Below, piece after piece: positions 99 to 63,319 of a stretch of DNA of 64,000 nucleotides. This stretch comes from Arenicola marina (Eukaryota; Annelida; Polychaeta; Arenicolidae): NCBI GenBank assembly GCA_964019135.1, contig OZ025252.1, forward strand, positions 6,216,823 to 6,280,822, given 5' to 3'. Below the pieces are notes generated by a model. That model saw only the letters and a list, made by a program, of their open reading frames with translations. It did no database searches and was not told where the DNA came from. Made by a program: the position numbers and the translations under genes. Positions within the stretch are counted from its first letter, which is position 1. Every line of letters begins with the position of its first letter.

Positions 99-224
99 GT
101 GAACCATTTCCCCGGATCCGGCTACTTGACGAACAAGTTAAACCTTGTGAGCTCCCACCAACAGCTGGACGAAGTGCCGCGCGCCTACCGCATCCCACAG
201 GATAAGGAGGACCTCCTGTCCCAC
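99..224 (+). CDS. TTLL15: TTLL15-like exon a
   Basis: The acceptor is ccacccag/gtg and the donor is ccac/gtgagt. Its 42 codons are in phase 0 at both ends and begin VNHFPGSGYLTNKLNL. The NHFPG and TNK motifs mark the early part of the TTLL catalytic domain. The first repeat array begins directly at its donor. Confidence 0.85.
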
Positions 225-3200
225 GTGAGTCCGTCACCCCATAGCGTAGGCTATGGGTGCTCTGTTATATGGGGGTCAGTCACCGCATCGCGTAGGCTAT
301 GGGGGCTCTGTTATATGTGGGTCAGTCACCGCATCGCGTAGGCTATGGGTGCTCTGTTATATGTGGGTCTGTCACCGCATCGCGTAGGCTATGGGTGCTC
401 TGTTATATGTGGGTCAGTCACCGCATCGCGTAGGCTATGGGTGCTCTGTTATATGTGGGTCAGTAACCGCATCGCGTAGGCTATGGATGCTCTGTTATAT
501 GTGGGTCAGTCACCGCGTCGCGTAGGCTATGGGTGCTCTGTTATATGTGGGTCAGTCACCGCATCGCGTAGGCTATGGATGCTCTGTTATATGTGGGTCA
601 GTCACCGCATAGCGTAGGCTATGGGTGCTCTGTTATATGTGGGTCAGTCACCGCATCGCGTAGGCTATGGGTGCTCTGTTATATGTGGGTCAGTCACCGC
701 ATCGCGTAGGCTATGGGTGCTCTGTTATATGTGGGTCAGTCACCGCATAGCGTAGGCTATGGGTGCTCTGTTATATGTGGGTCAGTCACCGCATCGCGTA
801 GGCTATGGGTGCTCTGTTATATGTGGGTCAGTCACCGCATCGCGTAGGCTATGGGTGCTCTGTTATATGTGGGTCAGTCACCGCATCGCGTAGGCTATGG
901 GTGCTCTGTTATATGTGGGTCAGTCACCGCATCGCGTAGGCTATGGGGGCTCTGTTATATGTGGGTCAGTCACCGCATAGCGTAGGCTATGGGTGCTCTG
1001 TTATATGTGGGTCAGTCACGGCATCGCGTAGGCTATGGGTGCTCTGTTATATGTGGGTCAGTCACCGCATCGCGTAGGCTATGGGTGCTCTGTTATATGT
1101 GGGTCAGTCACCGCATAGCATAGACTATGGTAAAGTCGGGAGACCCACTCCGTTCCTCCGTTGAGTCGCGGTTCCAGCCTGTCTTTCCCGCAAGGATTTT
1201 CAAAAGGAATAGGCGCATTGGTAAATTCTGAATCATCTGGAGGCACATTGGAGCTAAATATCACATTTTTGTATAGATTAATATTTTAGCTATCAACTTC
1301 TTCCAAACAATCAGAAAGATGTTTCATTTGTATCTGTGTTTGCAAGACGTTTTACGGAGTACCAATTTCCGATCCGATTGGCCAATTCAAAATACAATTC
1401 GCCAATAGCAACATGTGGAGCAGACAGCTTCACTACAGGTTTCCCTGTTATACGATTGAACAAAGTTGCCTCACTATCTTTGATCAAGTATTTAAATAAA
1501 GACACATGTAGGTACTTTTAAAATTTGGCGGAAAAAGCATACGAAAATAGTGTTGTGTTTTGTCATTAGATGGAGCTAAACCCAGATAAGATGTGGGTTC
1601 AGAAGAGTAGCAACCATCGAGGTGTAAAGATAAAGAAACAATCGGGTAAGTCCGCCTCACCAACTGAGACGTCAAAACAAACACTCAAGTACATCTGCCA
1701 CATCACTAAGACGTCAAAACTAACACTGGGGTAAGTCCGCTTCATCTAGTATGACGTCAAACAAACACTGAGGTTAGTTCGCCATATCCACTAAGACGTC
1801 AAAACAAACACTGAGGTAAGTTCGCCATATCCACTAAGACGTCAAAACAAACACTAAGGTAAGTTTGCCATATCTACTGAGACGTCAAAACAAACACTGA
1901 GGTAAGTTAGCTTCAACCACTGAGACGTCAAAACAAACACTGAGGTAAGTCCGCTTCGTCCACTAAGACGTCAAACCAAACACTAAGGTAAGTCCGCTTC
2001 ATCCACTACGACGTCAAAACAAACACTGAGGTTATTCCGCTTCATCCACTGAAACGTCTAAACAAATACTCAAGTATGTCCGCCACAAGCACTTCGCCGT
2101 CAACATGAAGAAACCCTCTGGTAGAAAGTCTGTTGACCAATTAATTTCCTATAAGCACAGATGTCCAAACCACTTATTTTGTAAGAAAGACAGAATGAAG
2201 CTCATCTGTTGCTCATATTTCTATAATGACTAGCATCTTCTCTCAGAAACGGCATCCTGCATTTAATTTTAAATAATTAATTTTAAATATTCCACACTTT
2301 TCGCTTGCAGAGCTAGACTTGAACCAAGATGGAACATTTGTACAGGAGTACATACATAAACCCTATCTTATTGACGGAAGGTAAGAGTAAAATTACTGTT
2401 AATATCTTCGTGAAGCACATTGAAAAATTGTTGCTTATTGCATAACATATTATTCACTTCATGGTTCATACAGAGATGGCCTTTCCACGCTTTCTGTAAT
2501 CTGACCCGTACATCAATTTCCTTAGCTCCCAACCGTGCCAAGACATGCTAACGTGCAGCAACACATCACCCTTCTGATGTTTGATCTCGTTAGACTGTCC
2601 CTTCATGCTTAAAGTGATGTCTGCGACAGGCATACAGGTATATGTTGTTATACTGTCACACAAACATATGACTGATCCGTTGCCCCCCCCCCCCCCAACC
2701 CGGACCTGTTTTTGCAGGCGGTTTGACATCGGGATATACACGACCCTCACCTCCATAGATCCGCTGCGGCTCTATATCTTTGAGGGGGACTGGCTCGTCA
2801 GGTAAGGGATTCACTGGGCTCCAGAGACTAGGTCAGAGACAGTTCAGGATACACTGATGTCACTATCTGGTTAATGATACCCCAATGTCACTATCTGGTT
2901 AACGATACCCCAATGTCACTATCTGGTTAATGAAACCCCAATGTCACTATCTGGTTAATGATACCCCAATGTCACTATCTGGTTAATGATACCCCAATGT
3001 CACTATCTGGTTAACGATACCCCAATGTCACTATCTGGTTAACGATACTCCAATGTCATTAGCTGGTTAACGATACCCCAACGTCACTATCTGGTTAATG
3101 ATACCCCAATGTCACTATCTGGTTAACGATACTCTAATGTCACTATCTGGTTAATGATACCCCAATGTCACTAACTGGTTAACGATACCCCAATGTCACT

Positions 3201-6200
3201 ATCTGGTTAATGATACCCCAATGTCACTATCTGGTTAATGATACCCCAATGTCACTATCTGGTTAATGATACCCCAATGTCACTATCTGGTTAATGATAC
3301 CCCAATGTCACTATCTGGTTAACGATACCCCAATGTCACTAGCTGGTTAATGATACCCCAATGTCGCTATCTGGTTAACGATACCCCAATGTCACTATCT
3401 GGTTAACGATAACCCAATGTCACTATCTGGTTAACGATACCCCAATGTCACTATCTGCTTAATGATAGATTGAGCGATAGCTCAATGGGTTAGAACGCTC
3501 GCCTTGAGTGCTCTGGCCGCGTGAGAGCCAACGTCCTGATTATACAACCAACCAACCAACTTTAAGATGGTTCACGGACTTTTTGGTCCCCAGGTTCTGC
3601 CCGGACCAATACTACCCTTTTGACGCCACCAACATCAATTCTTACGTGATAACCGACGATTACCTGCCGCCCTGGAAGGTGGGTCCTCGTTCACAGTGCC
3701 AGCCGGGTACACGAGACGGCAGCTGTGTGTGTTAGTTCATCAGGTGATTGTGGTACAGACGACAGCTGTGTGTATTTGTGTTAGTTCATCAGGTGATTGT
3801 GGTACAGACGACAGCTGTGTGTATGTGTGTTAGTTCATCCTGTGATTGTGGTACAGACGACAGCTGTGTGTATGTGTGTTAGTTCATCCTGTGATTGTGG
3901 TACAGACGACAGCTGTGTGTATGTGTGTTAGTTCATCAGGTGATTGTGGTACAGACGACAGATGTGTGTATGTGTGTTAGTTCATCAGGTGATTGTGGTA
4001 CAGACGACAGATGTGTGTATGTGTGTTAGTTCATCCTGTGATTGTGGTACAGACGACAGTTGTGTGTATGTGTGTTAGTTCATCCTGTGATTGTGGTACA
4101 GACGACAGATGTGTGTATGTGTGTTAGTTCATCCTGTGATTGTGGTACAGACGACAGATGTGTGTATGTGTGTTAGTTCATCAGGTGATTGTGGTACAGA
4201 CGACAGCTGTGTGTATGTGTGTTAGTTCATCAGGTGATTGTGGTACAGACGACAGCTGTGTGTATGTGTGTTAGTTCATCGGGTGATTGTGGTACAGACG
4301 ACAGATGTGTCTATGTGTGTTAGTTCATCAGGTGATTGTGGTACAGACGACAGCTGTGTGTATGTGTGTTAGTTCATCAGGGGATTGTGGTACAGACGAC
4401 AGATGTGTGTATGTGTGTTAGTTCATCCTGTGATTGGGGTACAGACGACAGCTGTGTGTATGTGTGTTAGTTCATCCTGTGATTGGGGTACAGACGACAG
4501 CTGTGTGTATGTGTGTTAGTTCATCCTGTGATTGGGGTACAGACGACAGCTGTGTGTATGTGTGTTAGTTCATCAGGTGATTGTGGTACAGACGACAGCT
4601 GTGTGTATGTGTGTTAGTTCATCCTGTGATTGTGGTACAGACGACAGCTGTGTGTATGTGTGTTAGTTCATCCTGTGATTGTGGTACAGACGACAGCTGT
4701 GTGTATGTGTGTTAGTTCATCAGGTGATTGTGGTACAGACGACAGCTGTGTGTATGTGTGTTAGTTCATCCTGTGATTGTGGTACAGACGACAGCTGTGT
4801 GTATGTGTGTTAGTTCATCGGGTGATTGTGGTACAGATGACAGATGTGTGTATGTGTGTTAGTTCATCCTGTGATTGGGGTACAGACGACAGCTGTGTGT
4901 ATGTGTGTTAGTTCATCCTGTGATTGTGGTACAGACGACAGCTGTGTGTATGTGTGTTAGTTCATCCTGTGATTGGGGTACAGACGACAGATGTGTGTAT
5001 GTGTGTTAGTTCATCCTGTGATTGTGGTACAGACGACAGCTGTGTGTATGTGTGTTAGTTCATCCTGTGATTGTGGTACAGACGACAGCTGTGTGTATGT
5101 GTGTTAGTTCATCCTGTGATTGTGGTACAGACGACAGCTGTGTGTATGTGTGTTAGTTCATCCTGTGATTGTGGTACAGACGACAGCTGTGTGTATGTGT
5201 GTTAGTTCATCGGGTGATTGTGGTACAGACGACAGATGTGTGTATGTGTGTTAGTTCATCAGGTGATTGTGGTACAGACGACAGCTGTGTGTATGTGTGT
5301 TAGTTCATCAGGTGATTGTGGTACAGACGACAGCTGTGTGTATGTGTGTTAGTTCATCCTGTGATTGTGTTACAGACACGACAGCTGTGTGTATGTGTGT
5401 TAGTTCATCAGGTGATTGTGGTACAGACGACAGCTGTGTGTATGTGTGTTAGTTCATCCTGTGATTGTGGTAGAGACACGACAGCTGTGTGTATGTGTGT
5501 TAGTTCATCCTGTGATTGTGGTACAGACGACAGCTGTGTGTATGTGTGTTAGTTCATCAGGTGATTGTGGTACAGACGACAGCTGTGTGTATGTGTGTTA
5601 GTTCATCGGGTGATTGTGGTACAGACGACAGATGTGTGTATGTGTGTTAGTTCATCAGGTGATTGTGGTACAGACGACAGCTGTGTGTATGTGTGTTAGT
5701 TCATCAGGTGATTGTGGTACAGACGACAGATGTGTGTATGTGTGTTAGTTCATCCTGTGATTGTGGTACAGACGACAGCTGTGTGTATGTGTGTTAGTTC
5801 ATCAGGTGATTGTGATACAGACGACAGCTGTGTGTATGTGTGTTAGTTCATCCTGTGATTGTGGTACAGACGACAGCTGTGTGTATGTGTGTTAGTTCAT
5901 CCTGTGATTGTGGTACAGACGACAGATGTGTGTATGTGTGTTAGTTCATCAGGTGATTGTGGTACAGACGACAGCTGTGTGTATGTGTGTTAGTTCATCC
6001 TGTGATTGTGGTACAGACGACAGCTGTGTGTATGTGTGTTAGTTCATCAGGTGATTGTGGTACAGACGACAGCTGTGTGTATGTGTTAGTTCATCCTGTG
6101 ATTGTGGTACAGACGACAGCTGTGTGTATGTGTGTTAGTTCATCAGGTGATTGTGGTACAGACGACAGCTGTGTGTATGTGTGTTAGTTCATCCTGTGAT

Positions 6201-9200
6201 TGTGGTACAGACGACAGCTGTGTGTATGTGTGTTAGTTCATCCTGTGATTGTGGTACAGACGACAGATGTGTGTATGTGTGTTAGTTCATCAGGTGATTG
6301 TGGTACAGACACGACAGCTGTGTGTATGTGTGTTAGTTCATCCTGTGATTGTGGTACAGACGACAGCTGTGTGTATGTGTGTTAGTTCATCCTGTGATTG
6401 GGGTACAGACGACAGCTGTGTGTATGTGTGTTAGTTCATCAGGGGATTGTGGTACAGACGACAGATGTGTGTATGTGTGTTAGTTCATCCTGTGATTGGG
6501 GTACAGACGACAGCTGTCTGTATGTGTGTTAGTTCATCCTGTGATTGTGGTACAGACGACAGCTGTGTGTATGTGTGTTAGTTCATCCTGTGATTGTGGT
6601 ACAGACGACAGCTGTGTGTATGTGTGTTAGTTCATCCTGTGATTGTGGTACAGACGACAGATGTGTGTATGTGTGTTAGTTCATCCTGTGATTGGGGTAC
6701 AGACGACAGATGTGTGTATGTGTGTTAGTTCATCGGGTGATTGTGGTACAGACGACAGCTGTGTGTATGTGTGTTAGTTCATCCTGTGATTGGGGTACAG
6801 ACGACAGCTGTGTGTATGTGTGTTAGTTCATCCTGTGATTGGGGTACAGACGACAGCTGTGTGTATGTGTGTTAGTTCATCCTGTGATTGTGGTACAGAC
6901 GACAGCTGTGTGTATGTGTGTTAGTTCATCAGGTGATTGTGGTACAGACGACAGCTGTGTGTATGTGTGTTAGTTCATCCTGTGATTGTGGTACAGACGA
7001 CAGCTGTGTGTATGTGTGTTAGTTCATCGGGTGATTGTGGTACAGACGACAGATGTGTGTATGTGTGTTAGTTCATCAGGTGATTGTGGTACAGACGACA
7101 GCTGTGTGTATGTGTGTTAGTTCATCCTGTGATTGTGGTACAGACGACAGCTGTGTGTATGTGTGTTAGTTCATCCTGTGATTGTGGTACAGACACGACA
7201 GCTGTGTGTATGTGTGTTAGTTCATCAGGTGATTGTGGTACAGACGACAGCTGTGTGTATGTGTGTTAGTTCATCCTGTGATTGTGGTAGAGACACGACA
7301 GCTGTGTGTATGTGTGTTAGTTCATCCTGTGATTGTGGTACAGACGACAGCTGTGTATATGTGTGTTAGTTCATCAGGTGATTGTGGTACAGACGACAGC
7401 TGTGTGTATGTGTGTTAGTTCATCGGGTGATTGTGGTACAGACGACAGATGTGTGTATGTGTGTTAGTTCATCAGGTGATTGTGGTACAGACGACAGCTG
7501 TGTGTATGTGTGTTAGTTCATCCTGTGATTGGGGTACAGACGACAGATGTGTGTATGTGTGTTAGTTCATCCTGTGATTGTGGTACAGACGACAGCTGTG
7601 TGTATGTGTGTTAGTTCATCAGGTGATTGTGGTACAGACGACAGCTGTGTGTATGTGTGTTAGTTCATCCTGTGATTGTGGTACAGACGACAGCTGTGTG
7701 TATGTGTGTTAGTTCATCAGGTGATTGTGGTACAGACGACAGCTGTGTGTATGTGTGTTAGTTCATCCTGTGATTGTGGTACAGACGACAGCTGTGTGTA
7801 TGTGTGTTAGTTCATCAGGTGATTGTGATACAGACGACAGCTGTGTGTATGTGTGTTAGTTCATCCTGTGATTGTGGTACAGACGACAGCTGTGTGTATG
7901 TGTGTTAGTTCATCCTGTGATTGTGGTACAGACGACAGATGTGTGTATGTGTGTTAGTTCATCAGGTGATTGTGGTACAGACACGACAGCTGTGTGTATG
8001 TGTGTTAGTTCATCCTGTGATTGTGGTACAGACGACAGCTGTGTGTATGTGGGTTAGTTCATCCTGTGATTGGGGTACAGACGACAGCTGTGTGTATGTG
8101 TGTTAGTTCATCAGGGGATTGTGGTACAGACGACAGATGTGTGTATGTGTGTTAGTTCATCCTGTGATTGGGGTACAGACGACAGCTGTGTGTATGTGTG
8201 TTAGTTCATCCTGTGATTGTGGTACAGACGACAGCTGTGTGTATGTGTTAGTTCATCAGGTGATTGTGGTACAGACGACAGATGTGTGTATGTGTGTTAG
8301 TTCATCCTGTGATTGGGGTACAGACGACAGCTGTGTGTATGTGTGTTAGTTCATCCTGTGATTGTGTTACAGACGACAGATGTGTGTATGTGTGTTAGTT
8401 CATCAGGTGATTGTGGTACAGACGACAGCTGTGTGTATGTGTGTTAGTTCATCGGGTGATTGTGGTACAGACGACAGCTGTGTGTATGTGTGTTAGTTCA
8501 TCCTGTGATTGTGGTACAGACGACAGCTGTGTGTATGTGTGTTAGTTCATCGGGTGATTGTGGTACAGACGACAGCTGTGTGTATGTGTGTTAGTTCATC
8601 CTGTGATTGTGGTACAGACGACAGCTGTGTGTATGTGTGTTAGTTCATCCTGTGATTGTGGTACAGACGACAGCTGTGTGTATGTGTGTTAGTTCATCCT
8701 GTGATTGTGGTACAGACGACAGCTGTGTGTATGTGTGTTAGTTCATCAGGTGATTGTGGTACAGACACGACAGCTGTGTGTATGTGTGTTAGTTCATCAG
8801 GTGATTGTGGTACAGACACGACAGCTGTGTGTATGTGTGTTAGTTCGTCAGGTGATTGTGGTACAGACACGACAGCTGTGTGTATGTGTGTTAGTTCATC
8901 AGGTGATTGTGGTACAGACACGACAGCTGTGTGTATTTATACTCACACAGCATATGTATGTATATTCTACGTGGTTGGGCTAGACCACGTGGTTGGGCTA
9001 GACTACGTGGTCGGGCTAGACCACGAGGTTGGGCTAGACCACGTGGTTGGGCTAGACCACGTGGTTGGGCTAGACCACGTGGTTGGGCTAGACCACGTGG
9101 TTGGGCTAGACCACGTGGTTATGCGGCACCGGGAACACGTGATCGTAGTAGGACCAGTTGTTCGATCTTAATAGTGTGACTCCATTGTATACTTTTTGCC

Positions 9201-12200
9201 AGATTCCATCGTTGAAAAAGGCATACGAAGAACTTGACTACAATAGGAAGGAGAGCTTATTCGCTTATCTTCGCCAAGACGGTGAGTTCTGCTAATGAAA
9301 CGATTTGCACCTTACTCGAGGAGTGATTACTCAAAGAAATAGAAGTTACGGGCATCCACACGGCCCCAATAATCGCTCATGTCTAGTCCTGTCTAAAGTG
9401 TTACCTCTGCGTGATTTACGTCGAGATCCTAATATTGTATTCAGGTGTAAATTGTGCACGCCACGTATTCAAGGCCAGGATCCTGGTATTGTGTTCAGGT
9501 GTAAATTGTGCACGCCACGTATCCCCGGCCAGGATCCTGGTATTGTATTCATGTCCAGTTCCTGCTTTGGCATTCACGTCTAAGCTGCACCTTCTTCAGG
9601 ACAAGATCCTGATATGTATTCATGTCGTGATCCTGCTTTGGCATTTATGCTTAAACGCCTCCACCTGTTTCAGGCCGGGATCCTGATCTGCTGGCGGCCA
9701 AACTTAAGGATGCGATCCGGAAAACAGTGCTGATGAAGGAAGCCAGCCTGATCCAGGCGACGTCCAATTACCGCTCGTCAAAGTAAAGGATCACGCCTCC
9801 TTATAACTCATGTACCGTATCATATTATAATTAATACGGCAGTACTAAATGCCATGTCTTTATTCAGTAATCCTCCTGTTGGATCGAAATATCGGTCATG
9901 ACGTCACGTCTGGGGGATCCCCCATTCTATATAAATGGCTTGCCCCTTGTTATGAAATGCTCGCCTACTCGCCTACTAAATGTGAAAAAGCCTTACAGGC
10001 TAAAAGTGCCGTTAAGCCCCAATCAAATGAAAGCTAATCAAGTAAATGTGAAAAATTAAATATAGAATATGAAAAAAAGAGCATATGAATGGCCTTCAAA
10101 ACATATTTTAAAATGTGTTAATTGATTATTTCGTTGCCCTTTCAGAAATTTCTTTGAGATGGTTCGCTTTGATTTTGTCTTTGATGAGGATCTCAATGTC
10201 TACCTGATGGAGGTAAATGTGTGTTGGTCCTGTGGGGGGGGGGTATCTATATCAATGTCTACCTGATGGAGGTAAATGTGTGTTGGTCCTGGGGGGGGGG
10301 TATCTATATCAATGTCTACCTGATGGAGGTAAATGTGTGTTTGTCCTGGGGGGGGGGGGGGGTATCTATATCAATGTCTACCTGATGGAGGTAAATGTGT
10401 GTTGGTCCTGGCGGGGGGGGGGTATCTATATCAATGTCTACCTGATGGAGGTAAATATGTGTTGGTCCTGGTGGGGGGCGGTATCTATATCAATGTCTAC
10501 CTGATGGAGGTAAATGTGTGTTGGTCCTGGGGGGGGGGTATCTATATCAATGTCTACCTGATGGAGGTAAATGTGTATTGGTCCTGGGGGGGGGGGTATC
10601 TATATCAATGTCTACTTGATGGAGGTAAATATGTGTTGGTCCTGGTGGGGGGCGGTATCTATATCAATGTCTACCTGATGGAGGTAAATGTGTGTTGGTC
10701 CTGGTTGGTGTGGGGGGGGGTATCTATATCAATGTCTACCTGATGGAGGTAAATGTGTGTTGGTCCTGGGGCGGGGGGGGGGTATCTATATCAATGTCTA
10801 CCTGATGGAGGTAAATGTGTGTTGGTCCTGGGGCGGGGGGGGGGGGTATCTATATCAATGTCTACCTGATGGAGGTAAATGTATGTTGGTCCTGGGGGGG
10901 GGGGTGGTGGTATCTATATCAATGTCTACCTGATGGAGGTAAATGTGTGTTGGTCCTTGGAGGGGGGGGTATCTATATCAATGTCTACCTGATGGAGGTA
11001 AATGTGTGTTGGTCCTGGGGGGGGGTATCTATATCAATGTCTACCTGATGGAGGTAAATGTGTGTTTGTCCTGTGGGGGGGGGTATCTATATCAATGTCT
11101 ACCTGATGGAGGTAAATGTGTGTTGGTCCTGGGGGGGGGGGGGTATCTATATCAATGTCTACCTGATGGAGGTAAATGTGTGTTGGTCCTGGCGGGGGGG
11201 GGGTATCTATATCAATGTCTACCTGATGGAGGTAAATGTGTGTTGGTCCTGGTTGGTGGGGGGGGGGGGCGGTATCTATATCAATGTCTACCTGATGGAG
11301 GTAAATGTGTGTTGGTCCTGGGGGGGGGGGGTATCTATATCAATGTCTACCTGATGGAGGTAAATGTGTGTTTGTCCTGTGGGGGGGGGGGGGGGGTGGT
11401 ATCTATATCAATGTCTACCTGATGGAGGTAATTGTGTATTGGTCCTTGGGGGGGGGGATCTATATCAATGTCTACCTGATGGAGGTAAATGTGTGTTGGT
11501 CCTGGTGGGGGGCGGTATCTATATCAATGTCTACCTGATGGAGGTAAATGTGTGTTGGTCCTGGGGGGGGGGTATCTATATCAATGTCTACCTGATGGAG
11601 GTAAATGTGTGTTTGTCCTGTGGGGGGGGGGGGTGGTATCTATATCAATGTCTACCTGATGGAGGTAATTGTGTATTGGTCCTTGGGGGGGGGATCTATA
11701 TCAATGTCTACCTGATGGAGGTAAATGTGTGTTGGTCCTGGTGGGGGGCGGTATCTATATCAATGTCTACCTGATGGAGGTAAATGTGTGTTGGTCCTGG
11801 GGGGGGGGGATCTATATCAATGTCTACCTGATGGAGGTAAATGTGTGTTTGTCCTGTGGGGGGGGGGTATCTATATCAATGTCTACCTGATGGAGGTAAT
11901 TGTGTATTGGTCCTGGGGGGGGGGGGTATCTATATCAATGTCTACCTGATGGAGGTAAATGTGTGTTGGTCCTGGGGGGGGGGCGGTATCTATATCAATG
12001 TCTACCTGATGGAGGTAAATGTGTGTTGGTCCTGGTGGGGGGGGTGGGGGTATCTATATCAATGTCTACCTGATGGAGGTAAATGTGTGTTGGTCCTGGT
12101 GGGGGGGGTGGGGGTATCTATATCAATGTCTACCTGATGGAGGTAAATGTGTGTTGGTCCTGTGGGGGGGGGGTATCTATATCAATGTCTACCTGATGGA

Positions 12201-23095: not shown

Positions 23096-23155
23096 TCAGC
23101 CAGAGATTGGTCCATACCCCTGATACCTGACATGTTAAGCGGCCTGTGATGTTTA

Positions 23156-24040: not shown

Positions 24041-24044
24041 AAAT

Positions 24045-52100: not shown

Positions 52101-55100
52101 ATCATAGTGACGCCTACCTTGCTGGTCCTGATGTGATCTTGGAGTTCATGGCCCCGATCATGGTGACGCCTACCTTGCTGGTCCTGAGGGGTGAGTTCAT
52201 TACCCTGATCACGGTGACGTCTACCTTGCTGGTCCTGAGGTGTGATCTTGGAGTTCATGGCCCTGATCATGGTGACGCCTACCTTGCTGGTCCTGAGGGG
52301 TTAGTTCATGGCCCTGATCATGGTGACGCCTATCTTGCCGGTCCTGAGGGGTGATCTTGGAGTTCATGGCCCTGATCATGGTGACGCCTACCTTGCTGGT
52401 CCTGAGGGGTGATCTTGGAGTTCATGACCCTGATCATGGTGACGCCTACATTGCTGGTCCTGAGGGGTAATCTCGGAGTTCATGATCCTGATCATAGTGA
52501 CGCCTACCTTGCTGGTCCTGATGTGATCTTGGAGTTCATGGCCCCGATCATGGTGACGCCTACCTTGCTGGTCCTGAGGGGTGAGTTCATTACCCTGATC
52601 ACGGTGACGTCTACCTTGTTGGTCCTGAGGTGTGATCTTGGAGTTCATGGCCCTGATCATGGTGACGCCTACCTTGCTGGTCCTGAGGGGTTAGTTCATG
52701 GCCCTGATCATGGTGACGCCTATCTTGCTGGTCCTGAGGGGTGATCTTGGAGTTCATGGCCCTGATCATGGTGACGCCTACCTTGCTGGTCCTGAGGGGT
52801 GATCTTGGAGTTCATGGCCCTGATCATGGTGACGCCTACCTTGCTGGTCCTGAGGGGTGATCTTGGAGTTCATGGCTCTGATCATGGTGACGCCTACCTT
52901 GCTGGTCCTGAGGGGTGATCTTGGAGTTCATGGCCCTGATCATGGTGACGCCTACCTTGCTGGTCCTGAGGGGTGATCTTGGAGTTCATGGCTCTGATCA
53001 TAGTGACGCCTACCTAGCTGGTCCTGAGGGGTGATCTTGGAGTTCATGACCCTGATCATGGTGACGCCTACCTTGCTGGTCCCGAGGGGTGATCTTGGAG
53101 TTCCTGGCCCTGATCATGGTGACGCCTACTTTGCTGGTCCTGAGGGGTGATCTTTGAGTTCATGACCCTGATCATGGTGACGCCTACCTTGCTGGTCCTG
53201 AGGGGTGATCTTGGAGTTCATGGCCCTGATCATGGTGACGCCTACCTTGCTGGTCCTGAGGGGTGAGGTCATGGCCCTGATCATGGTGACGCCTACCTTG
53301 CTGGTCCTGAGGGGTGATCTTGGAGTTCATGGCCCTGATCATGGTGACGCATACCTTGCTGGTCCTGAGGGGTGATCTTGGAGTTCATGGCCCTGATCAT
53401 GGTGACGTCTACCTTGCTGGTCCTGAGGGGTGATCTTGGAGTTCATGGCTCTGCTCATGGTGACGCCTACCTTGCTGGTCCTGAGGGGTGATCTTGGAGT
53501 TCATGGCCCTGATCATGGTGACGCCTACCTTGCTGGTCCTGAGGGGTGATCTTGGAGTTCATGGCTCTGTTCATGGTGACGCTTACCTTGTTGGTCCTGA
53601 GGGGTGATATTGGAGTTTATGGCCCTGATCATGGTGACGCCTACCTTGTTGGTCCTGAGGGGTGATCTTGGAGTTCGTGGCTCTGATCATGGTGACGCCT
53701 ACCTTGTTGGTCCTGAGGGGTGATATTGGAGTTCGTGGCTCTGATCATGGTGACGTCTACCTTGCTGGTCCTGAGGGGTTAGTTCATGGCCCTGATCATG
53801 GTGACGCCTACATTGCTGGTCCTGAGGGGTGATCTTGGAGGTCATGGCCCTGATCATGGTGACGCCTATCTTGCTGGTCCTGAGGGGTGAGTTCATGGCC
53901 CTGATCATGGTGACGCCTACCTTGCTGGTCCTGAGGGGTGATCTTGGAGTTCATGGCCCTGATCATGGTGACGCCTACCCTGCTGGTCCTGAGGGGTGAT
54001 CTTGGAGGTCATGGCCCTGATCATGGTGACGCCTACCTTGCTGGTCCTGAGGGGTGAGTTCATGGCTCTGATCATAGTGACGCCTACCTTGCTGGTCCTG
54101 AGGGGTGATCTTGGAGTTCATGGCCCTGATCATGGTGACGCCTACCTTGCTGGTCCTGAGGGGTGATCTTGGAGTTCATGGCTCTGATCATGGTGACGCC
54201 TACCGTGCTGGTCCTGAGGGGTGATCTTGAAGTTCATGGCCCTGATCATGGTGACGCCTACCTTGCTGGTCCTGAGGGGTGATCTTGGAGTTCATGGCTC
54301 TGATTATAGTGACGCCTACCTTGCTGGTCCTGAGGGGTGATCTTGGAGTTCATGACCCTGATCATGGTGACGCCTACCTTGCTGGTCCCGAGGGGTGATC
54401 TTGGAGTTCCTGGCCCTGATCATGGTGACGCCTACTTTGCTGGTCCTGAGGGGTGATCTTGGAGTTCATGACCCTGATCATGGTGACGCCTACCTTGCTG
54501 GTCCTGAAGGGTGATCTTGGAGTTCATGGCCCTGATCATGGTGACGCCTACCTTGCTGGTCCTGAGGGGTTATCTTGGAGTTCATGGCCCTGATCATGGT
54601 GACGTCTACCTTGCTGGTCCTGAGGGTTGATCTTGGAGTTCATGGCTCTGCTCATGGTGACGCCTACCTTACTGGTCCTGAGGGGTGATCTTGGAGTTCA
54701 TGGCTCTGTTCATGGTGACGCTTACCTTGTTGGTCCTGAGGGGTGATCTTGGAGTTCATGGCCCTGATCATGGTGACGCCTACCTTGTTGGTCCTGAGGG
54801 GTGATCTTGGAGTTCGTGGCTCTGATCATGGTGACGCCTACCTTGTTAGTCCTGAGGGGTGATATTGGAGTTCGTGGCTCTGATCATGGTGACGTCTACC
54901 TTGCTGGTCCTGAGGGGTTAGTTCATGGCCCTGATCATGGTGACGCCTACCTTGCTGGCCCTGAGGGTTGATCTTGGAGTTCATGACCCTGATCATGGTG
55001 ACGCCTACCTTGTTGGTCCTGAGGGGTGATATTGGAGTTCATGGCCCTGATCATGGTGACGCCTACATTGCTGGTCCTGAGGGGTGATCTTGGAGGTCAT

Positions 55101-58100
55101 GGCCCTGATCATGGTGACGCCTATCTTGCTGGTCCTGAGGGGTGAGTTCATGGCCTTGATCATGGTGACGCCTACCTTGCTGGTCCTGAGGGGTGATCTT
55201 GGAGTTCATGGCCCTGATCATGGTAACGCCTACCTTGCTGGTCCTGAGGGGTGATCTTGGAGTTCATGGCCCTGATCATGGTGACGCCTACCCTGCTGGT
55301 CCTGAGGGGTGATCTTGGAGGTCATGGACCTGATCATGGTGACGCCTACCTTGCTGGTCCTGAGGGGTGAGTTCATGGCTCTGATCATAGTGACGCCTAC
55401 CTTGCTGGTCCTGAGGGGTGATCTTGGAGTTCACGGCCCTGATCATGGTGACGCCTACCTTGCTGGTCCTGAGGCGTGAGTTCATGACCCTGATCATGGT
55501 GACGCCTACCTTGCTCGTCTTGAGGGGTGATCTTGGAGTTCATGGCCCTGATCATGGTGACGCCTACCTTGCTGGTCCTGAGGGGTGATCTTGGAGTTCA
55601 TGGCTCTGATCATGGTGACGCCTACCTTGCTGGTCCTGAGGGGTGATCTTGGAGTTCATGGCCCTGAACATGGTGACGCCTACCTTGGTGGTCCTGAGGG
55701 GTGATCTTGGAGTTCATGGCTCTGATCATAGTGACGCCTACCTTGCTGGTCCTGAGGGGTGATCTTGGAGTTCATGACCCTGATCATGGTGACGCCTACC
55801 TTGCTGGTCCTGAGAGGTGATCTTGGAGTTCATGACCCTGATCATGGTGACGCCTACCTTGCTGGTCCTGAGGGGTGATCTTGGAGTTCATGGCCCTGAT
55901 CATGGTGACGCCTACCTTGCTGGTCCTGAGGGGTGAGGTCATGACCCTGATCATGGTGACGCCTACCTTGCTGGTCCTGAGGGGTGATCTTGGAGTTCAT
56001 GGCCCTGATCATGGTGACGCCTACTTTGCTGGTCCTGAGGGGTGATCTTGGAGTTCATGGCCCTGATCATGGTGACGCCTACCTTGCTGGTCCTGAGGGG
56101 TGATCTTGGAGTTCATGGCCCTGATCATGGTGACGCCTACCTTGCTTGTCCTGAGGGGTGATCTTGGAGTTCATGGCTCTGCTCATGGTGACGCCTACCT
56201 TGTTGGTCCTGAGGGGTGATCTTGGAGTTCATGGCCCTGATCATGGTGACGCCTACCTTGTTGGTCCTGAGGGGTGGCGTTCGTGGCTCTGATCATGGTG
56301 ACGTCTACCTTGCTGGTCCTGAGGGGTTAGTTCATGGCCCTGATCATGGTGATGCCTACCTTGCTGGTCCTGAGGGGTGATCTTGGAGTTCATGGCCCTG
56401 ATCATGGTGACGCCTACCTTGCTGGTCCTGAGGGGTGAGGTCATGACCCTGATCATGGTGACGCCTACCTTGCTGGTCCTGAGGGGTGATCTTGGAGTTC
56501 ATGGCCCTGATCATGGTGACGCCTACTTTGCTGGTCCTGAGGGGTGATCTTGGAGTTCATGGCCCTGATCATGGTGACGCCTACCTTGCTGGTCCTGAGG
56601 GGTGATCTTGGAGTTCATGGCCCTGATCATGGTGACGCCTACCTTGCTTGTCCTGAGGGGTGATCTTGGAGTTCATGGCTCTGCTCATGGTGACGCCTAC
56701 CTTGTTGGTCCTGAGGGGTGATCTTGGAGTTCATGGCCCTGATCATGGTGACGCCTACCTTGTTGGTCCTGAGGGGTGGCGTTCGTGGCTCTGATCATGG
56801 TGACGTCTACCTTGCTGGTCCTGAGGGGTTAGTTCATGGCTCTGATCATGGTGACGCCTACATTGCTGGTCCTAAGGGGTGATCTTGGAGGTCATGGCCC
56901 TGATCATGGTGACGCCTACCTTGCTGGTCCTGAGGAGTGAGTTCATGGCCTCGATCATGGTGACGCCTACCTTGCTGGTCCTGAGGGGTGATCTTGGAGG
57001 TCATGGCCCTGATCATGTTGACGCCTACCTTGCTGGTCCTGATGGGTGAGTTCATGGCCTTGATCATGGTGACGCCTATCTTGCTGGTCCTGAGGGGTGA
57101 TCTTGGAGTTCATGGCCCTGATCATGGTGACGCCTACCTTGCTGGTCCTGAGGGGTGATCTTGGAGTTCATGGCCCTGATCATGGTGACGCCTACCTTGC
57201 TGGTCCTGAGGGGTGAGGTCATGGCCCTGATCATGGTGACGCCTACCTTGCTGGTCCTGAGGGGTGATCTTGAAGTTCATGGCTCTGATCATGGTGACGC
57301 CTACCTTGCTGGTCCTGAGGGGTGATCTTGAAGTTCATGGCTCTGATCATGGTGACGCCTACCTTGCTGGTCCTGAGGGGTGATCTTGGAGTTCATGGCC
57401 CTGATCATGGTGACGCCTACCTTGTTGGTCCTGAGGGGTGATCTTGGAGTTCATGGCCCTGATCATGGTGACGCCTACCTTGCTGGTCCTGAGGGGTGAT
57501 CTTCGAGGTCATGGCCCTGATCATGGTGACGCCTACCTTGCTGGTCCTGAGGGGTGAGTTCATGGCCCTGATCATGGTGACGCCTACCTTGCTGGTCCTG
57601 AGGGGTGAGTTCATGGCCCTGATCATGGTGACGCCTACCTTGCTGGTCCTGAGGGGTGATCTTGGAGTTCATGGCCTTGATCATGGTGACGCCTACCATG
57701 CTGGTCCTGAGGGGTGAGTTCATGGCCTTGATCATGGTGACGCCTACCGTGCTGGTCCTGAGGGGTGATCTTGGAGTTCATGGCCCTGATCATGGTGACG
57801 CCTACCTTGCTGGTCCTGATGGGTGATCTTGGAGTTCATGGCCCTGGTCATGGTGACGCCTACCTTGCTGGTCCTGAGGGATGAGTTCATGGCCTTGATC
57901 ATGGTGACGCCTACCTTGCTGGTCCTGAGGGGTGATCTTGGAGTTCATGACCCTGGTCATGGTGACGCCTACCTTGCTGGTCCTGAGGGGTGAGTTCATG
58001 GCCTTGAACATGGTGACGCCTACCTTGCTGGTCCTGAGGGGTGATCTTGGAGTTCATGGCCCTGATCATGGTGACGCCTACCTTGGTGGTCCTGAGGGGT

Positions 58101-61100
58101 GAGGTCATGGCCCTGATCATGGTGACGCCTACCTTGCTTGTCCTGAGGGGTGATCTTGGAGTTTCTGGCCCTGATCATGGTGACGCCTACCTTGCTGGTC
58201 CTGAGGGGTGATCTTGGAGTTCATGGCCCTGGTCATGGTGACGCCTACCTTGCTGGTCCTGCGGGGTGATCTCGGAGTTCATGACCCTGATCATAGTGAC
58301 GCCTACCTTGCTGGTCCTGAGGGGTTAGTTCATGGCCCTGATCATGGTGACGCCTACATTGCTGGTCCTGAGGGGTGATCTTGGAGGTCATGGCCCTGAT
58401 CATGGTGACGCCTACCTTGGTGGTCCTGAGGGATTAGTTCATGGCCCTGATCATGGTGACGCCTACCTTGCTGGTCCTGAGGGGTGATCTTGGAGTTCAT
58501 GGCTCTGATCACGGTGACGCCTACCTTGCTGGTCCTGAGGGGTGATCTTGGAGTTCATGGCTCTGATCATGGTGACGCCTACCTTACTGGTCCTGAGGTG
58601 TGATCTTGGAGTTCATGGCTCTGCTCATGGTGACGCCTACCTTGCTGGTCCTGAGGGGTGATATTGGCGTTCGTGGCTCTGATCATGGTGACGTCTACCT
58701 TGCTGGTCCTGAGGGGTTAGTTCATGGCCCTGATCATGGTGACGCCTACCTTGCTGGTCCTGAGGGGTGATCTTGGAGTTCATGGCTCTGATCATGGTGA
58801 CGCCTACCTTACTGGTCCTGAGGTGTGATCTTGGAGTTCATGGCTCTGCTCATGGTGACGCCTACCTTGCTGGTCCTGAGGGGTGATCTTGGAGTTCATG
58901 GCTCTGATCATGATGACGCCTACCTTGCTGATCCTGAGGGGTGATCTTGGAGTTCATGGCTCTGACCATGGTGACGGGGATGGAGCTGGCTAGTCCGACT
59001 GGAGCGACTGCGGGGAACAAAGACAACAACAACATTGGTACACGCGTCCAAATCATCGACGGATTGGTTGGTGGTATATTCAGGACGCTTTTGACTATAT
59101 CTATATTGACTATATCGCGTCAATGGGAGAAAAAAGCGAGACAGGAACCTTGTTCCCAGGGGTAACCCCCTACTTTTTGCGAAGAAGGACATGAGATCTT
59201 TATCCTGCGACCACACAGACATCGCCACAGCGGGGTTCGAACCATCGATCCACGTGCCGTTACGCTCTCAGGTGACCAGAGCGCTTAATGCCAGCGCTCT
59301 AGCCCACTGAGCTACCGGGCCGGCCCCGAGACTCACCCAGGAACCTGGACCAGGTGTTGACTAGGGGACTCGCCGAGGAACATGGACCAGGTGTTGACTT
59401 GGGGACTCGCCGAGGAACATGGACCAGGTGTTGACTTGGGGACTCGCCGAGGAACATGGACCAGGTGTTGACTAGGGGACTCGCCGAGAAACATGGACCA
59501 GGTGTTGACTAGGGGACTCGCCGAGGAACATGGACCAGGTGTTGACTAGGGGACTCGCCGAGAAACATGGACCAGGTGTTGACTAGGGGACTCGCCGAGG
59601 AACATGAACCAGGTGTTGACTAGGGGACTCGCCGAGAAACATGGACCAGGTGTTGACTAGGGGACTCGCCGAGAAACCTGGACCAGGTGTTGACTAGGGG
59701 ACTCGCCGAGGAACATGGACCAGGTGTTGACTAGGGGACTCGCCGAGGAACATGGACCAGGTGTTGACTAGGGGACTCGCCGAGAAACATGGACCAGGTG
59801 TTGACTAGGGGACTCGCCGAGGAACATGGACCAGGTGTTGACTAGGGGACTCGCCGAGGAACATGGACCAGGTGTTGACTAGGGGACTCGCCGAGGAACA
59901 TGGACCAGGTGTTGACTAGGGGACTCGCCGAGAAACATGGACCAGGTGTTGACTAGGGGACTCGCCGAGGAACCTGGACCAGGTGTTGACTAGGGGACTC
60001 GCCGAGGAACATGGACCAGGTGTTGACTAGGGGACTCGCCGAGGAACATGGACCAGGTGTTGACTAGGGGACTCGCCGAGAAACATGGACCAGGTGTTGA
60101 CTAGGGGACTCGCCGAGGAACATGGACCAGGTGTTGACTAGGGGACTCGCCGAGAAACATGGACCAGGTGTTGACTAGGGGACTCGCCGAGGAACCTGGA
60201 CGAGGTGTTGACTAGGGGACTCGCCGAGGAACATGGACCAGGTGTTGACTAGGGGACTCGCCGAGAAACATGGACCAGGTGTTGACTAGGGGACTCGCCG
60301 AGGAACATGGACCAGGTGTTGACTAGGGGACTCGCCGAGAAACATGGACCAGGTGTTGACTAGGGGACTCGCCGAGGAACATGGACCAGGTGTTGACTAG
60401 GGGACTCGCCGAGGAACATGGACCAGGTGTTGACTAGGGGACTCGCCGAGAAACATGGACCAGGTGTTGACTAGGGGACTCGCCGAGGAACCTGGACCAG
60501 GTGTTGACTAGGGGACTCGCCGAGGAACATGGACCAGGTGTTGACTAGGGGACTCGCCGAGGAACATGGACCAGGTGTTGACTAGGGGACTCGCCGAGGA
60601 ACATGGACCAGGTGTTGACTAGGGGACTCGCCGGGAAACATGGACCAGGTGTTGACTAGGGGACTCGCCGAGGAACATGGACCAGGTGTTGACTAGGGGA
60701 CTCGCCGAGAAACATGGACCAGGTGGTGACTAGGGGACTCGCCGAGGAACATGGACCAGGTGTTGACTAGGGGACTCGCCGAGAAACATGGACCAGGTGT
60801 TGACTAGGGGACTCGCCGAGGAACATGGACCAGGTGTTGAGTAGGGGACTCGCCGAGGAACCTGGACCAGGTGTTGACTAGGGGACTCGCCGAGAAACAT
60901 GGACCAGGTGTTGACTAGGGGACTCGCCGAGGAACATGGACCAGGTGTTGAGTAGGGGACTCGCCGAGGAACATGGACCAGGTGTTGACTAGGGGACTCG
61001 CCGAGGAACATGGACCAGGTGTTGACTAGGGGACTCGCCGAGAAACATGGACCAGGTGTTGACTAGGGGACTCGTCGAGGAACCTGGACCAGGTGTTGAC

Positions 61101-63319
61101 TAGGGGACTCGCCGAGGAACATGGACCAGGTGTTGACTAGGGGACTCGCCGAGGAACATGGACCAGGTGTTGACTAGGGGACTCGCCGAGAAACATGGAC
61201 CAGGTGTTGACTAGGGGACTCGCCGAGGAACATGGACCAGGTGTTGACTAGGGGACTCGCCGAGAAATATGGACCAGGTGTTGACTAGGGGACTCGCCGA
61301 GGAACATGGACCAGGTGTTGACTAGGGGACTCGCCGAGAAACATGGACCAGGTGTTGACTAGGGGACTCGCCGAGGAACATGGACCAGGTGTTGACTAGG
61401 GGACTCGCCGAGGAACATGGACCAGGTGTTGACTAGGGGACTCGCCGAGAAACATGGACCAGGTGTTGACTAGGGGACTCGCCGAGGAACCTGGACCAGG
61501 TGTTGACTAGGGGACTCGCCGAGGAACCTGGACCAGGTGTTGACTAGGGGACTCGCCGAGGAACATGGACCAGGTGTTGACTAGGGGACTCGCCGAGAAA
61601 CATGGACCAGGTGTTGACTAGGAGACTCGCCGAGGAACATGGACCAGGTGTTGACTGGGGGACTCGCCGAGAAACATGGACCAGGTGTTGACTAGGGGAC
61701 TCGCCGAGGAACATGGACCAGGTGTTGACTAGGGGACTCGCCGAGAAACATGGACCAGGTGTTGACTAAGGGACTCGCCGAGGAACATGGACCAGGTGTT
61801 GACTAGGGGACTCGCTGAGGAACATGGACCAGGTGTTGACTAGAGGACTCGCCGAGAAACATGGACCAGGTGTTGACTAGGGGACTCGCCGAGAAACATG
61901 GACCAGGTGTTGACTAGGGGACTTACCGAGGAACATGGACCACGTGTTGACGCAGAAGGGCAGCACGACGAAGTAGACGATGGCGGAGAGGCAGCCCAGG
62001 ATGGCCAGACCGTGCTCGTGGATGCGGCGGTGCAGCGCGGCCACCACGGCCATGGCCCCCAGGTTGTTGCACACCGCCGTCCAGGCCATGAAGCCGCCTA
62101 CGAGGAGGGCCGCCCAGCAGAGCGGCGAGTTGAGGAAGTAGAGGGTGAGGGGGTCCCAGCGGCCCACCACGGTGATGTCGCAGCAGACCATGGCCGCTAG
62201 GAGCAGCACTCGCGTCCAGCGGTGGCCGCCGTCCTCCCCGCCGCTGTACAGCCGGAACACCCTGGTCACGTGCCCGACGTCAAACACGCTCCAGCTGCGG
62301 GACGCGGCTGTAGAGGTCACGGACGCCACTGTAGAGGTCACTGACTGCGCTGTAGAGGTCACTGACCCCGCTGCAGTGGTCACTGACTGCGCCGTAGAGC
62401 TCACGGACTCGGTATTTGCAGGGCTAATGTTTTGGGGTTCCTCCGCGGGAGGGTAGCGCTGTAGGTTCTTTCCCTTCCTCCTCTTCCTCTTCCCCAGGTC
62501 CGGGACGAAGAAGATGACGTAGACCAGGTTGATGAGGTGCAGCCCCATCACCGGGAGGAAGGGGTACATGTACCCCAGCGTGGACACGGCGAACCCCATG
62601 GCAAGCTGTGCCAGGGCGACGCAGACCCCGCACGCCACGTCGATGGCCGTCATCCTAATGGTACGCTTGGTGCGGTCGCAGACGTCGGCCAGGTAGGCCA
62701 TGCAGGACATCATCATGGTGGTCATACCCCCCGTCAGGCCCTCCACCACGCTGCCGACCATCAGCAGCAGGATGGGCAGCCGGAAGCGCAGCGTCACCAC
62801 GAAGATGACGCACTTGACCAACTGGCCCACGAGAGGGACGATAATCGGGAGTTTCCGGCTGATCTGGTCGCTGTAGGCGCCGTAGAAGACGACGGTGAAC
62901 ACGGCGGGGACGTTGGCGGAGATCTCGACGATCATCAGGAGCTTAGCGGCCTGGTTCTGGACTTCCTGTTGCAGGTCGTACACGGGGTTGTCGTCGGCGG
63001 TGTTGTCCACGCACGTCAGGCTGCTGCCGTTAACCAGCTGACCCGTCGCCTCGATGACGGCCGTCAGGTTGTGGCGACTCGCCACCAGGGTGTAGACGAA
63101 CTGCGAGATGAGGGTCATGGAGGGCACGTAGGCCGTGACGAAAAGCGCCAGCACGGGCTCGATGATCACACGCCGCCTGGTCCCGCCCCGGACACCCGTC
63201 GGAGGGTCCACCTGGGGGGCCTCCCCTCCCGCCCCCGCCCCCGCCCCCTCCTCCCCCCAGCGGGGGTAGGCTGCCGGGCCGTCCACGGAGACGGCTGTCG
63301 GGTCCTCATCAGGGTTCAT
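43060..63319 (-). CDS. SLC46-family (PCFT-like) major facilitator transporter, 4 exons
   Basis: The exons in transcript order are 63319-61927, 59007-58924, 50456-50300 and 43141-43060, giving 571 residues with consistent phases. Marks are the first helix VIIEPVLALFVTAYVPSMTL (from residue 51), the MFS motif GAYSDQISRKLPIIVP (147-162), LASSIPVTMVRAMNSKITPQ in exon 2, and IYGATLLFMKGFVFLVMAG in exon 3. D151 and R155 align by eye with D109 and R113 of human PCFT, residues known to matter there. About 12 membrane segments are visible. The family couples protons to import of folates or other organic anions at plasma or lysosomal membranes; the substrate here is unknown. The central loop has an extra S/T/A-rich repeat, making the protein longer than the usual 460 residues. 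I cannot assign a specific SLC46 paralogue. Confidence 0.88.
43205..50325 (-). repeat. 59-bp donor-junction array, about 120 copies (SLC46 intron 3)
   Basis: Read on the - strand, each unit has about 25 exon 3 bases (gccatcgggctgggtgtc) then cgtcgt or accgt and the donor gtgagtaatc. Two exon-part types, gacgaca and ggtgaca on +, are interspersed. A 767-bp block (13 units), marked by the rare actaacac, recurs. Only about 60 unique bases remain before the last acceptor. Confidence 0.96.
50300..50456 (-). CDS. SLC46-like exon 3
   Basis: The acceptor is tctgttgcag and the donor is gtcgt/gtgagt. It reads GALFSALGVVDTLCSLAGSI, later NPIYGATLLFMKGFVFLVM and AGIEAIGLGVVV. QGALF...Y.ATL.F..GFVFL is a conserved SLC46 block covering the last helices. 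Confidence 0.88.
50562..51085. mobile_element. MITE copies C, fused head to head as a 520-bp fold-back
   Basis: Arm 1 (50562-50827) has taatagaccgacccaggctg ... tcaagcgtgggcggggctta ... ggtctatt. Arm 2 (50836-51085) is its reverse complement with changes (taagccccgcccacgcttga ... gacagcctgg). The loop is about 8 bases. It lies in SLC46 intron 2, so the pre-mRNA could form a hairpin of about 250 bp. Confidence 0.85.
51090..51900. other. SLC46 intron 2, unique sequence
   Basis: No exon with suitable phases or known repeat was seen. Short open frames have no recognisable protein feature. Confidence 0.55.
51905..58970 (-). repeat. 50/58-bp donor-junction array, about 125 copies (SLC46 intron 2)
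   Basis: On the - strand each unit has about 44 exon 2 bases (gccatgaactccaagatcac then ccctcaggaccagcaag) and the donor gtaggcgtcaccatgatca. Short units lack 8 bases (tccaagat). Each exon part reads MNSKITPQDQQG. Blocks recur at 390 bp (51998 and 52388) and about 500 bp (near 56275 and 56775). Confidence 0.96.
58924..59007 (-). CDS. SLC46-like exon 2
   Basis: The acceptor is tccccgcag and the donor is gcaag/gtaggc. It reads VAPVGLASSIPVTMVRAMNS and then KITPQDQQ. The SSIPVTMxRAMxSKxxPxxxQG pattern is typical of SLC46 proteins. Its last 44 or so bases and donor are the seed of a 7-kb array. Confidence 0.85.
59077..59323 (-). mobile_element. tRNA-derived SINE, second near-complete copy
   Basis: On the - strand it begins gcccggtagctcagtgggct, a clear box A, with ggttcgaaccccgctgtggc as box B, then the body shared with the 16474 copy. 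The tail is short (taccaccaaccaat). It separates the 37-bp array from exon 2. Confidence 0.87.
59330..61951 (-). repeat. 37-bp donor-junction array, about 70 copies (SLC46 intron 1)
   Basis: On the - strand each unit has gtcaacacctggtccatgtt and cctcg, matching the last 25 exon 1 bases with one change, then gcgagtcccctagtc. The true donor is gtaagtcccc, but copies carry GC in place of GT. Sub-types (gaggaac, gagaaac, cctgg) alternate. Confidence 0.96.
61927..63319 (-). CDS. SLC46-like exon 1 (464 codons)
   Basis: ATG at 63319 starts MNPDEDPTAVSVDGPAAYPR. A G/P-rich N terminus leads to the first helix at residue 51. N84, N97 and other N-x-S/T sites lie in the first loop with C103. Helices continue to residue 275; the loop 280-345 holds S-V-T/S-T-A heptads; helices resume at 368. 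It ends SMFL at ctcg/gtaagt in phase 1. Confidence 0.88.
62295..62410 (-). repeat. 21-bp coding minisatellite in SLC46 exon 1
   Basis: About five 21-bp units around gtagaggtcactgactgc encode S/T-A-x-SVTST heptads in the long central loop (residues about 305-340). Being a multiple of three, it preserves the frame. It explains much of the extra length over typical SLC46 proteins. Confidence 0.8.

What the first reader, a model, noticed from the sequence alone, without database searches (positions are those of the whole stretch)
99..61951. Introns of three unrelated genes filled with copies of their own splice junctions
In at least ten introns the tandem unit spans the 5' exon-intron border: 8-48 exon bases, the donor and some intron. 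Units differ wholly between introns, so each array was founded locally from its own junction. This suggests a process that initiates repeats at splice junctions, or selection that tolerates them there. From memory, 'mirage' minisatellites at exon-intron borders were reported in amphioxus Adh; I cannot verify it, and the density here still seems exceptional.
Basis: partly seen in the sequence, partly recalled or inferred. Interest (0 to 1): 0.95.

Follow-up and report, generated by a model that had tools for sequence, protein, structure and literature searches.

The report
Introns packed with splice-junction copies
In three neighbouring genes, probably of an annelid worm, about half of the introns are swollen by tandem repeats founded on their own exon border, so a real splice site faces from about seven to over a hundred look-alikes; it resembles the 'mirages' described in amphioxus and is a natural test of how cells choose the right splice site.

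Summary
Confirmed. Three gene models (TTLL15-like, Ost-alpha-like, MFS transporter) give continuous proteins. Arrays fill 40,426 of 49,393 intron bases. Of 40 junctions, 10 have their exon end repeated in their own intron (alignment score 21-49); the other 30 score 7-12. These are 8 donors and 2 acceptors, in 9 of 20 introns. Two weaker donors and one degenerate acceptor make 12 introns. Of 594 decoy donors, 511 keep GT and 396 match the real 9-mer. In 7 of 11 arrays most decoys are as strong as the real donor; in 4 they are weaker. Uniform seeding in collapsed introns predicts 4.5 spanning arrays of 22, and 10 are seen (P=0.0022; 0.00014 to 0.16 over 12 settings; donors alone 0.00005 to 0.018). 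The kind is known: amphioxus 'mirages'. The window's TTLL15 groups with annelids. Best reading: a minisatellite-prone genome in which border-spanning duplications survive because the first donor, or last acceptor, still gives the right mRNA. Junction-specific initiation, or a benefit of decoys, stays possible. The genome-wide and RNA tests could not be run.

The parts
99..22520 (+). Gene 1 (g1), TTLL15-like, 12 exons in the window: 99-224, 1570-1645, 2311-2380, 2718-2801, 3594-3678, 9203-9281, 9674-9782, 10146-10212, 14617-14744, 18144-18243, 21704-21820, 22392-22520; the 5' part lies outside the window
   Evidence: translation (exon 10 end corrected from 18203 to 18243 for frame; continuous), homologs, PF03133
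225..1130 (+). g1 intron 1 array, 46-nt unit, starts exactly at the donor; no exon homology
1645..2084 (+). g1 intron 2 array, 43-nt unit, donor plus about 14 diverged exon bases (weak case)
9425..9673 (+). g1 intron 6: 54-nt array (9425-9551) and a degenerate copy of the acceptor plus about 17 exon bases just upstream of the real acceptor at 9674
   Evidence: score 18, 0 of 1000 shuffles; not significant in the exon-only test (score 10)
10193..14420 (+). g1 intron 8 array, 59-nt unit = 20 exon bases + donor + intron; 69 decoys
14701..15213 (+). g1 intron 9 array, 62-nt unit = 44 or more exon bases + donor + 18 intron bases; 7 decoys
18198..21241 (+). g1 intron 10 donor array, 66-nt unit = 46 exon bases + 20 intron bases; 45 decoys
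21241..21745 (+). g1 intron 10 acceptor array, 63-nt unit = 22 intron bases + 41 exon bases; 7 upstream decoy acceptors, all in frame and without stop
30861..42092 (+). Gene 2 (g2), Ost-alpha-like, 7 exons: 30861-30918, 31444-31622, 34859-34932, 37441-37599, 38419-38527, 38950-39196, 41284-42092
   Evidence: PF03619
31600..34773 (+). g2 intron 2 donor array, 34-nt unit = 23 exon + 11 intron bases; 91 decoys kept of 94 tracked
35060..37478 (+). g2 intron 3 acceptor array, about 65-nt unit = CT tract + AG + about 38-40 exon bases
   Evidence: 36 decoys tracked; 34 found by motif
37593..38341 (+). g2 intron 4 donor array, 31-nt unit, about 7 exon bases (weak case); 22 decoys kept of 23 tracked
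39178..40329 (+). g2 intron 6 donor array, 65-nt unit, 19 exact exon bases (up to 46 with mismatches); 17 decoys
43060..63319 (-). Gene 3 (g3), MFS transporter, 4 exons: 63319-61927, 59007-58924, 50456-50300, 43141-43060
   Evidence: PF07690
59330..61951 (-). g3 intron 1 donor array, 37-nt unit, 25 exon bases; 70 decoys, of which one has GT (68 of 69 GC) while the real donor is GT
51912..58976 (-). g3 intron 2 donor array, 58-nt unit = 52 exon + 6 intron bases; 124 decoys
43194..50329 (-). g3 intron 3 donor array, 59-nt unit, about 26-33 exon bases; 120 decoys

Best explanation
The arrays are intronic minisatellites of the kind called 'mirages'. Shown: in nine introns the repeat unit is a copy of the exon end, the splice site and some intron. 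Inferred: a stretch of roughly 30-66 bases lying across a border was duplicated in tandem (slippage or break repair), and the pair then grew by unequal exchange. Such duplications survive because they do not change the message if the cell uses the first donor of a donor array (or the last acceptor of an acceptor array): every later copy is removed with the intron. A duplication wholly inside an exon would change the protein and be lost. The genome region is array-prone everywhere, and the border is simply the only coding-containing place where duplication is nearly free. Donor borders would be the easier case because the correct donor is transcribed first and sits at the end of a short exon. 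Not shown: that the mRNA really uses the first donor, and how the arrays begin.
For: Exon-derived units: 10 of 40 junctions, clean gap to controls. Array-prone everywhere: 40,426 of 49,393 intron bases, 5,495 of 10,086 non-genic bases, 452 of 4,521 exon bases. Correct protein needs first donor or last acceptor: continuous proteins match homologs, while reading through the ten donor arrays meets a stop after 1-102 bases, so 0-3 decoys could be used without one. The exon copy is the constrained one: 7 of 13 exon-versus-decoy differences are synonymous against 0.218 expected (P=0.011), whereas decoys vary about equally at the three codon positions (0.063, 0.070, 0.070). The two acceptor arrays are open-frame: g1i10 has 0 stops in the reading frame (12 and 10 in the others) with a 63-nt unit, and g2i3 has 1, 2 and 0 stops over 2,381 bases, as expected if upstream acceptors are sometimes used and must be harmless; hand estimate of such openness by chance is about 0.36 and 0.04, and n is two. 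In amphioxus, mirages are reported not to disturb splicing (PMC3087553 section 16; PMC3902484 passage).
Against: Tolerance with uniform seeding predicts 4.5 spanning arrays, 10 are seen (P=0.0022; 0.00014-0.16 over 12 settings), so tolerance alone may be too weak. Arrays of 1 kb or more span a border in 8 of 9 cases against 2 of 13 shorter ones (Fisher 0.0015), which tolerance does not predict. Donor versus acceptor 8:2 is not significant by itself (P=0.11; 11:2 with weak and touching cases, 0.022). In 4 of 11 donor arrays (g1i1, g1i2, g2i4, g3i1) most decoys are weaker than the real donor, so decoys may not be fully neutral.
Confidence: 0.6

Rival explanations
1. Junction-specific initiation: something about splice junctions (for example bound U1 and nascent RNA, R-loops, or pausing there) raises the rate of tandem duplication at the border.
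For: Excess over uniform seeding, strongest for donors: 8 seen, 2.23 expected, P=0.0004, 0.00005-0.018 over 12 settings. Three unrelated genes show it.
Against: Exon share of the unit ranges widely, from about 7 of 31 to 52 of 58 bases, so there is no fixed start point. Arrays also form in non-genic DNA. Transcript-strand GC skew of arrays has no common sign (positive in most g1 arrays, negative in g1i2, g1i4, g2i3, g3i1, g3i2), so no uniform R-loop signature.
Confidence: 0.2
2. Decoys are useful: long arrays persist because copies of the donor bind U1 and protect long introns from premature cleavage and polyadenylation (telescripting) or otherwise help the intron.
For: Arrays of 1 kb or more mostly span a border (8 of 9). 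Sense-strand U1-like sites exceed antisense in 14 of 15 intronic arrays of 400 bp or more, including 4 of the 5 that do not contain a homologous exon-donor unit; the 7 short intronic arrays have none on the sense strand (counted). No AATAAA/ATTAAA on the sense strand in any intronic array over 600 bp.
Against: For ten arrays the sense bias is true by construction. The score is home-made. Variation at the donor 9-mer is not significantly lower than in the rest of the unit in any of 8 arrays (permutation P 0.15-0.57). g3i1 decoys are GC. Lack of poly(A) signals is expected from so few distinct units. Telescripting itself seen only as the start of one abstract (PMC5499120, search listing).
Confidence: 0.1
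3. Intron birth: the introns themselves were made by tandem duplication of AGGT-containing exon pieces (Rogers model), and the arrays are the trace.
For: The model exists and multi-copy cases are described in fission yeast (PMC4974935 passages); amphioxus authors proposed mirages as a route to new introns.
Against: Donor-array units contain intron sequence after the donor and no acceptor tract, and the introns keep unique sequence and an unrelated acceptor. Introns without junction arrays sit in the same genes. Position conservation in other animals was not testable here.
Confidence: 0.04
4. Assembly artefact or wrong exon ends.
For: No raw reads or RNA were available; exon ends are inferred from splice signals, frame and homologs.
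Against: Units carry many variants (2-9% divergence from consensus in middle units of the larger arrays), which simple collapse or duplication errors would not give; exon ends are fixed by frame and homology in three genes. Exact copy numbers may still be wrong.
Confidence: 0.06

Closest known systems
Amphioxus 'mirage' minisatellites (Adh3, globins BflGb6 and BflGb9, troponin C, PGBD5)
   Same: Tandem repeats spanning exon-intron borders, at 5' and 3' borders, units different in each intron, intact GT/AG in many copies (PMC3087553 passages and section 16; PMC3902484 passage; the original Adh paper PMC117041 is not held).
   Different: The window protein groups with annelids, not amphioxus (Branchiostoma proteins 48-50% identical). 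Copy numbers of 7-124 per donor array against 6 and 3 units in BflGb6. Here 9-12 of 20 introns in one 64 kb stretch. Splicing, length polymorphism and somatic instability, reported in amphioxus, were not testable here.
[quoted passage not shown] ATP2A1, potato RdRp, fission yeast cases)
   Same: Short tandem duplications that include splice signals (PMC4974935 passages).
   Different: There the duplication creates an intron; here existing introns with unrelated acceptors are lengthened.
Tandem repeats in intron 1 of earthworm metallothionein genes
   Same: Annelid, minisatellite-sized units in an intron (PMC12783039 passages).
   Different: The passages seen do not describe units spanning an exon border.

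Membership tests
Mirage minisatellites | Tandem unit contains exon and intron sequence across a splice border | tested here: met
   10 of 40 junctions strong, 2 further donors weak
Mirage minisatellites | Occurs at 5' and 3' borders | tested here: met
   8 donors, 2 acceptors strong; one degenerate acceptor
Mirage minisatellites | Normal splicing is not disturbed | not testable with these tools
   No RNA; only indirect support from continuous proteins
Mirage minisatellites | Length instability between haplotypes or somatic cells | not testable with these tools
   One assembly, no reads
Mirage minisatellites | Host is a cephalochordate (reported range, not a structural criterion) | tested here: not met
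   TTLL15 tree: 100/97 with three unnamed proteins, then Capitella (81/81) and Owenia (93/95); one protein only
Intron gain by tandem duplication | New intron bounded by the duplicated segment's own AG and GT | tested here: not met
   Donor-array introns end in acceptors outside the repeat unit
Intron gain by tandem duplication | Intron absent in close relatives | not testable with these tools
   No related animal genome available

The most novel reading that the evidence does not exclude
Splice junctions, donors above all, are active birth or growth sites of minisatellites in this animal lineage, and the decoy donors help long introns (or re-seed the array from an exon copy that selection keeps intact), so that border arrays outgrow ordinary intronic arrays. 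Introns then hold up to 124 near-identical donors per intron, of which only the exon-end one is productive.
Probability: 0.25. Interest if true: 0.85.

Novelty: new member of a known kind. Interest (0 to 1): 0.62.

Why it matters
It carries the mirage phenomenon, as far as the papers found here go (open-licence library only) described in amphioxus, to what is probably an annelid, and at far higher copy number than the amphioxus globin cases. If confirmed by RNA, these genes are a natural experiment in splice-site choice: up to 124 donors, 90 of them identical to the real one in that intron (g3i2), compete in cis, so sequence strength cannot be what marks the real donor; position or order of transcription must. 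It also makes the question whether minisatellites are born at splice junctions testable by a simple genome-wide count.

Tried and rejected
Rejected: g1i1 as a junction-spanning case (no exon homology). Decoy exons as translated sequence in the donor arrays: decoys vary equally at all codon positions and read-through meets stops. A common strand skew showed no uniform sign. Selection against decoy donors as a general rule: not seen in per-column variation, but 4 of 11 arrays have weaker decoys, so it is not excluded.

Led nowhere: ARAGORN found no tRNA. Paper searches for identical competing splice sites and for other repeated splice sites returned nothing. The first test of g1i6 matched the query to itself and is void; it was redone. 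One search's column-rank figures are distorted by indels and are replaced. One search used a wrong end for g1 exon 10, giving a frameshift; corrected.

Rows dropped: from 77 TRF rows I merged 29 arrays; three short intronic rows (2263-2289, 38665-38708, 50654-50684) and one intergenic row (26007-26031) were left out. Adding the three intronic ones changes P from 0.0022 to 0.0029, and from 0.16 to 0.198 in the harshest setting. Of 598 tracked decoys 4 were dropped as too diverged. The 594 include 19 of g1i1; without them 575, 493 with GT.

Full report
Observation. The window is eukaryotic DNA in which tandem arrays cover 46,374 of 64,000 bases. I built three gene models from splice signals, frame and homology: g1 on the + strand, TTLL15-like (PF03133; best hits 69, 65 and 63% identical, unnamed; Capitella 56%); g2 on the + strand, Ost-alpha-like (PF03619; one hit, Paralvinella palmiformis, 46%; only the 7,992 candidates sharing most words were scored); g3 on the - strand, an MFS transporter (PF07690; two unnamed hits, which lack its C-terminal part). 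From memory g3 resembles the SLC46 family; no call shows this. The window holds 20 introns of these genes.

Junction test. For each of 40 junctions I aligned up to 60 exon bases to the adjoining intron. Ten junctions score 21-49; the other 30 score 7-12. Controls: reversed intron 19 at most (one case), reverse complement 12 at most, foreign introns 16 at most apart from one 28 explained by a short exon. The ten are 8 donors and 2 acceptors in 9 introns. Position-fixed tests support g1i2 (0 of 1274) and g2i4 (2 of 1274) and reject g1i1 (364 of 1274). A degenerate acceptor copy in g1i6 scores 18, with 0 of 1000 shuffles. Together 12 of 20 introns carry repeats founded on their own border.

Chance. 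With each array collapsed to one unit, the 20 introns shrink from 49,393 to 9,911 bases. If the founding unit falls uniformly over positions not wholly inside an exon, 4.46 of 22 arrays should span a border; 10 do (P=0.0022), donors 8 against 2.23 (P=0.0004). Over 12 settings of forbidden intron length and minimum overlap, P for ten runs from 0.00014 to 0.16, and for eight donors from 0.00005 to 0.018. With three short TRF rows added, the harshest values are 0.198 and 0.023. So there is an excess, firm for donors, moderate overall. The window was chosen because it looked unusual, which these P values do not correct for.

Decoys. Eleven donor arrays (g1i1 included) hold 594 kept decoys; 511 have GT, 396 are identical to the real 9-mer and 433 are at least as complementary to U1 by a home-made score. 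In 7 arrays most decoys equal or exceed the real donor; in g1i1, g1i2, g2i4 and g3i1 most are weaker; in g3i1 the decoys have GC where the real donor has GT. Variation at donor positions does not differ significantly from the rest of the unit in any of 8 arrays tested (permutation P 0.15-0.57). Real exon and decoy consensus differ at 13 coding sites, 7 synonymous, against 0.218 expected (P=0.011), while decoys vary alike at codon positions 1, 2 and 3: the exon copy is constrained, the decoys are not coding.

Which site is used. Only the first donor, or last acceptor, gives the homologous protein. Read-through of the ten donor arrays meets a stop within 1-102 bases. The two acceptor arrays differ: g1i10 has a 63-nt unit with no stop in the reading frame, so any of its 7 decoys would add whole 21-residue repeats; g2i3 has 1, 2 and 0 stops in its three frames over 2,381 bases; of 34 decoys 12 are in frame and 6 of those add no stop. 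This fits acceptor arrays being tolerated only when harmless, but rests on two arrays.

Size. Of 9 intronic arrays of 1 kb or more, 8 span a border; of 13 shorter ones, 2 do (Fisher P=0.0015). Tolerance does not explain this. Two ideas are open: the exon copy, kept intact by selection, may steady or re-seed the array; or decoy donors may help long introns through U1. Sense-strand U1-like sites exceed antisense in 14 of 15 intronic arrays of 400 bp or more (counted), but for ten of them that is so by construction.

Origin. A tree of 29 TTLL15 proteins puts the window with three unnamed proteins (100/97), then Capitella (81/81) and, with six further unnamed proteins, Owenia (93/95). Capitella and Paralvinella are annelids. 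The window is thus probably an annelid; it is not amphioxus (48-50% identity). One gene only; the species is unknown.

Known kind. Amphioxus 'mirages' are tandem repeats spanning exon-intron borders, reported for Adh3, globins, troponin C and PGBD5, said not to disturb splicing (PMC3087553, passages and section 16; PMC3902484, one passage). The original Adh paper is not held. Six searches of the open-licence library listed no report of border-spanning arrays at this scale outside amphioxus; this is not proof of absence. From memory, test-tube work on identical competing donors favours the one nearest the acceptor, which would be the wrong one here; I found no held paper on it.

Verdict. I file it as a new member of a known kind, in a probably new lineage and at high copy number, with an unexplained excess at donors and an unexplained link between border-spanning and array length.

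Noticed in passing
59330-61951 (g3 intron 1): All but one or two of about 70 decoys carry GC in place of the GT of the real donor, so a GC unit was amplified.
   Followed up: partly
18198-21745 (g1 intron 10): One intron consists almost wholly of a donor array followed directly by an acceptor array; collapsed to one unit each it would be 128 bases long.
   Followed up: partly
16674-16695 and 59107-59128: Two copies in opposite orientation of a dispersed repeat whose sequence reads like a tRNA-derived SINE; ARAGORN finds no tRNA.
   Followed up: no
50573-51079 (g3 intron 2): Fold-back element with nested inverted arms of 52, 94 and 93 bases, 79-88% complementary; by eye similar pieces lie near 38690-38950 and 40400-40800.
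   Followed up: no
22547-29570: Five tandem arrays between g1 and g2, up to 3.0 kb, with no known splice junction.
   Followed up: partly
62307-62410 (g3 exon 1): A 21-nt, in-frame tandem repeat inside coding sequence (about five copies), absent from the two homologs.
   Followed up: no
31600-34773 (g2 intron 2): Units differ at the donor (GTGAGT in most, GTAAGT in 22 of 90) and form higher-order periods of 68 and 102 bases.
   Followed up: no
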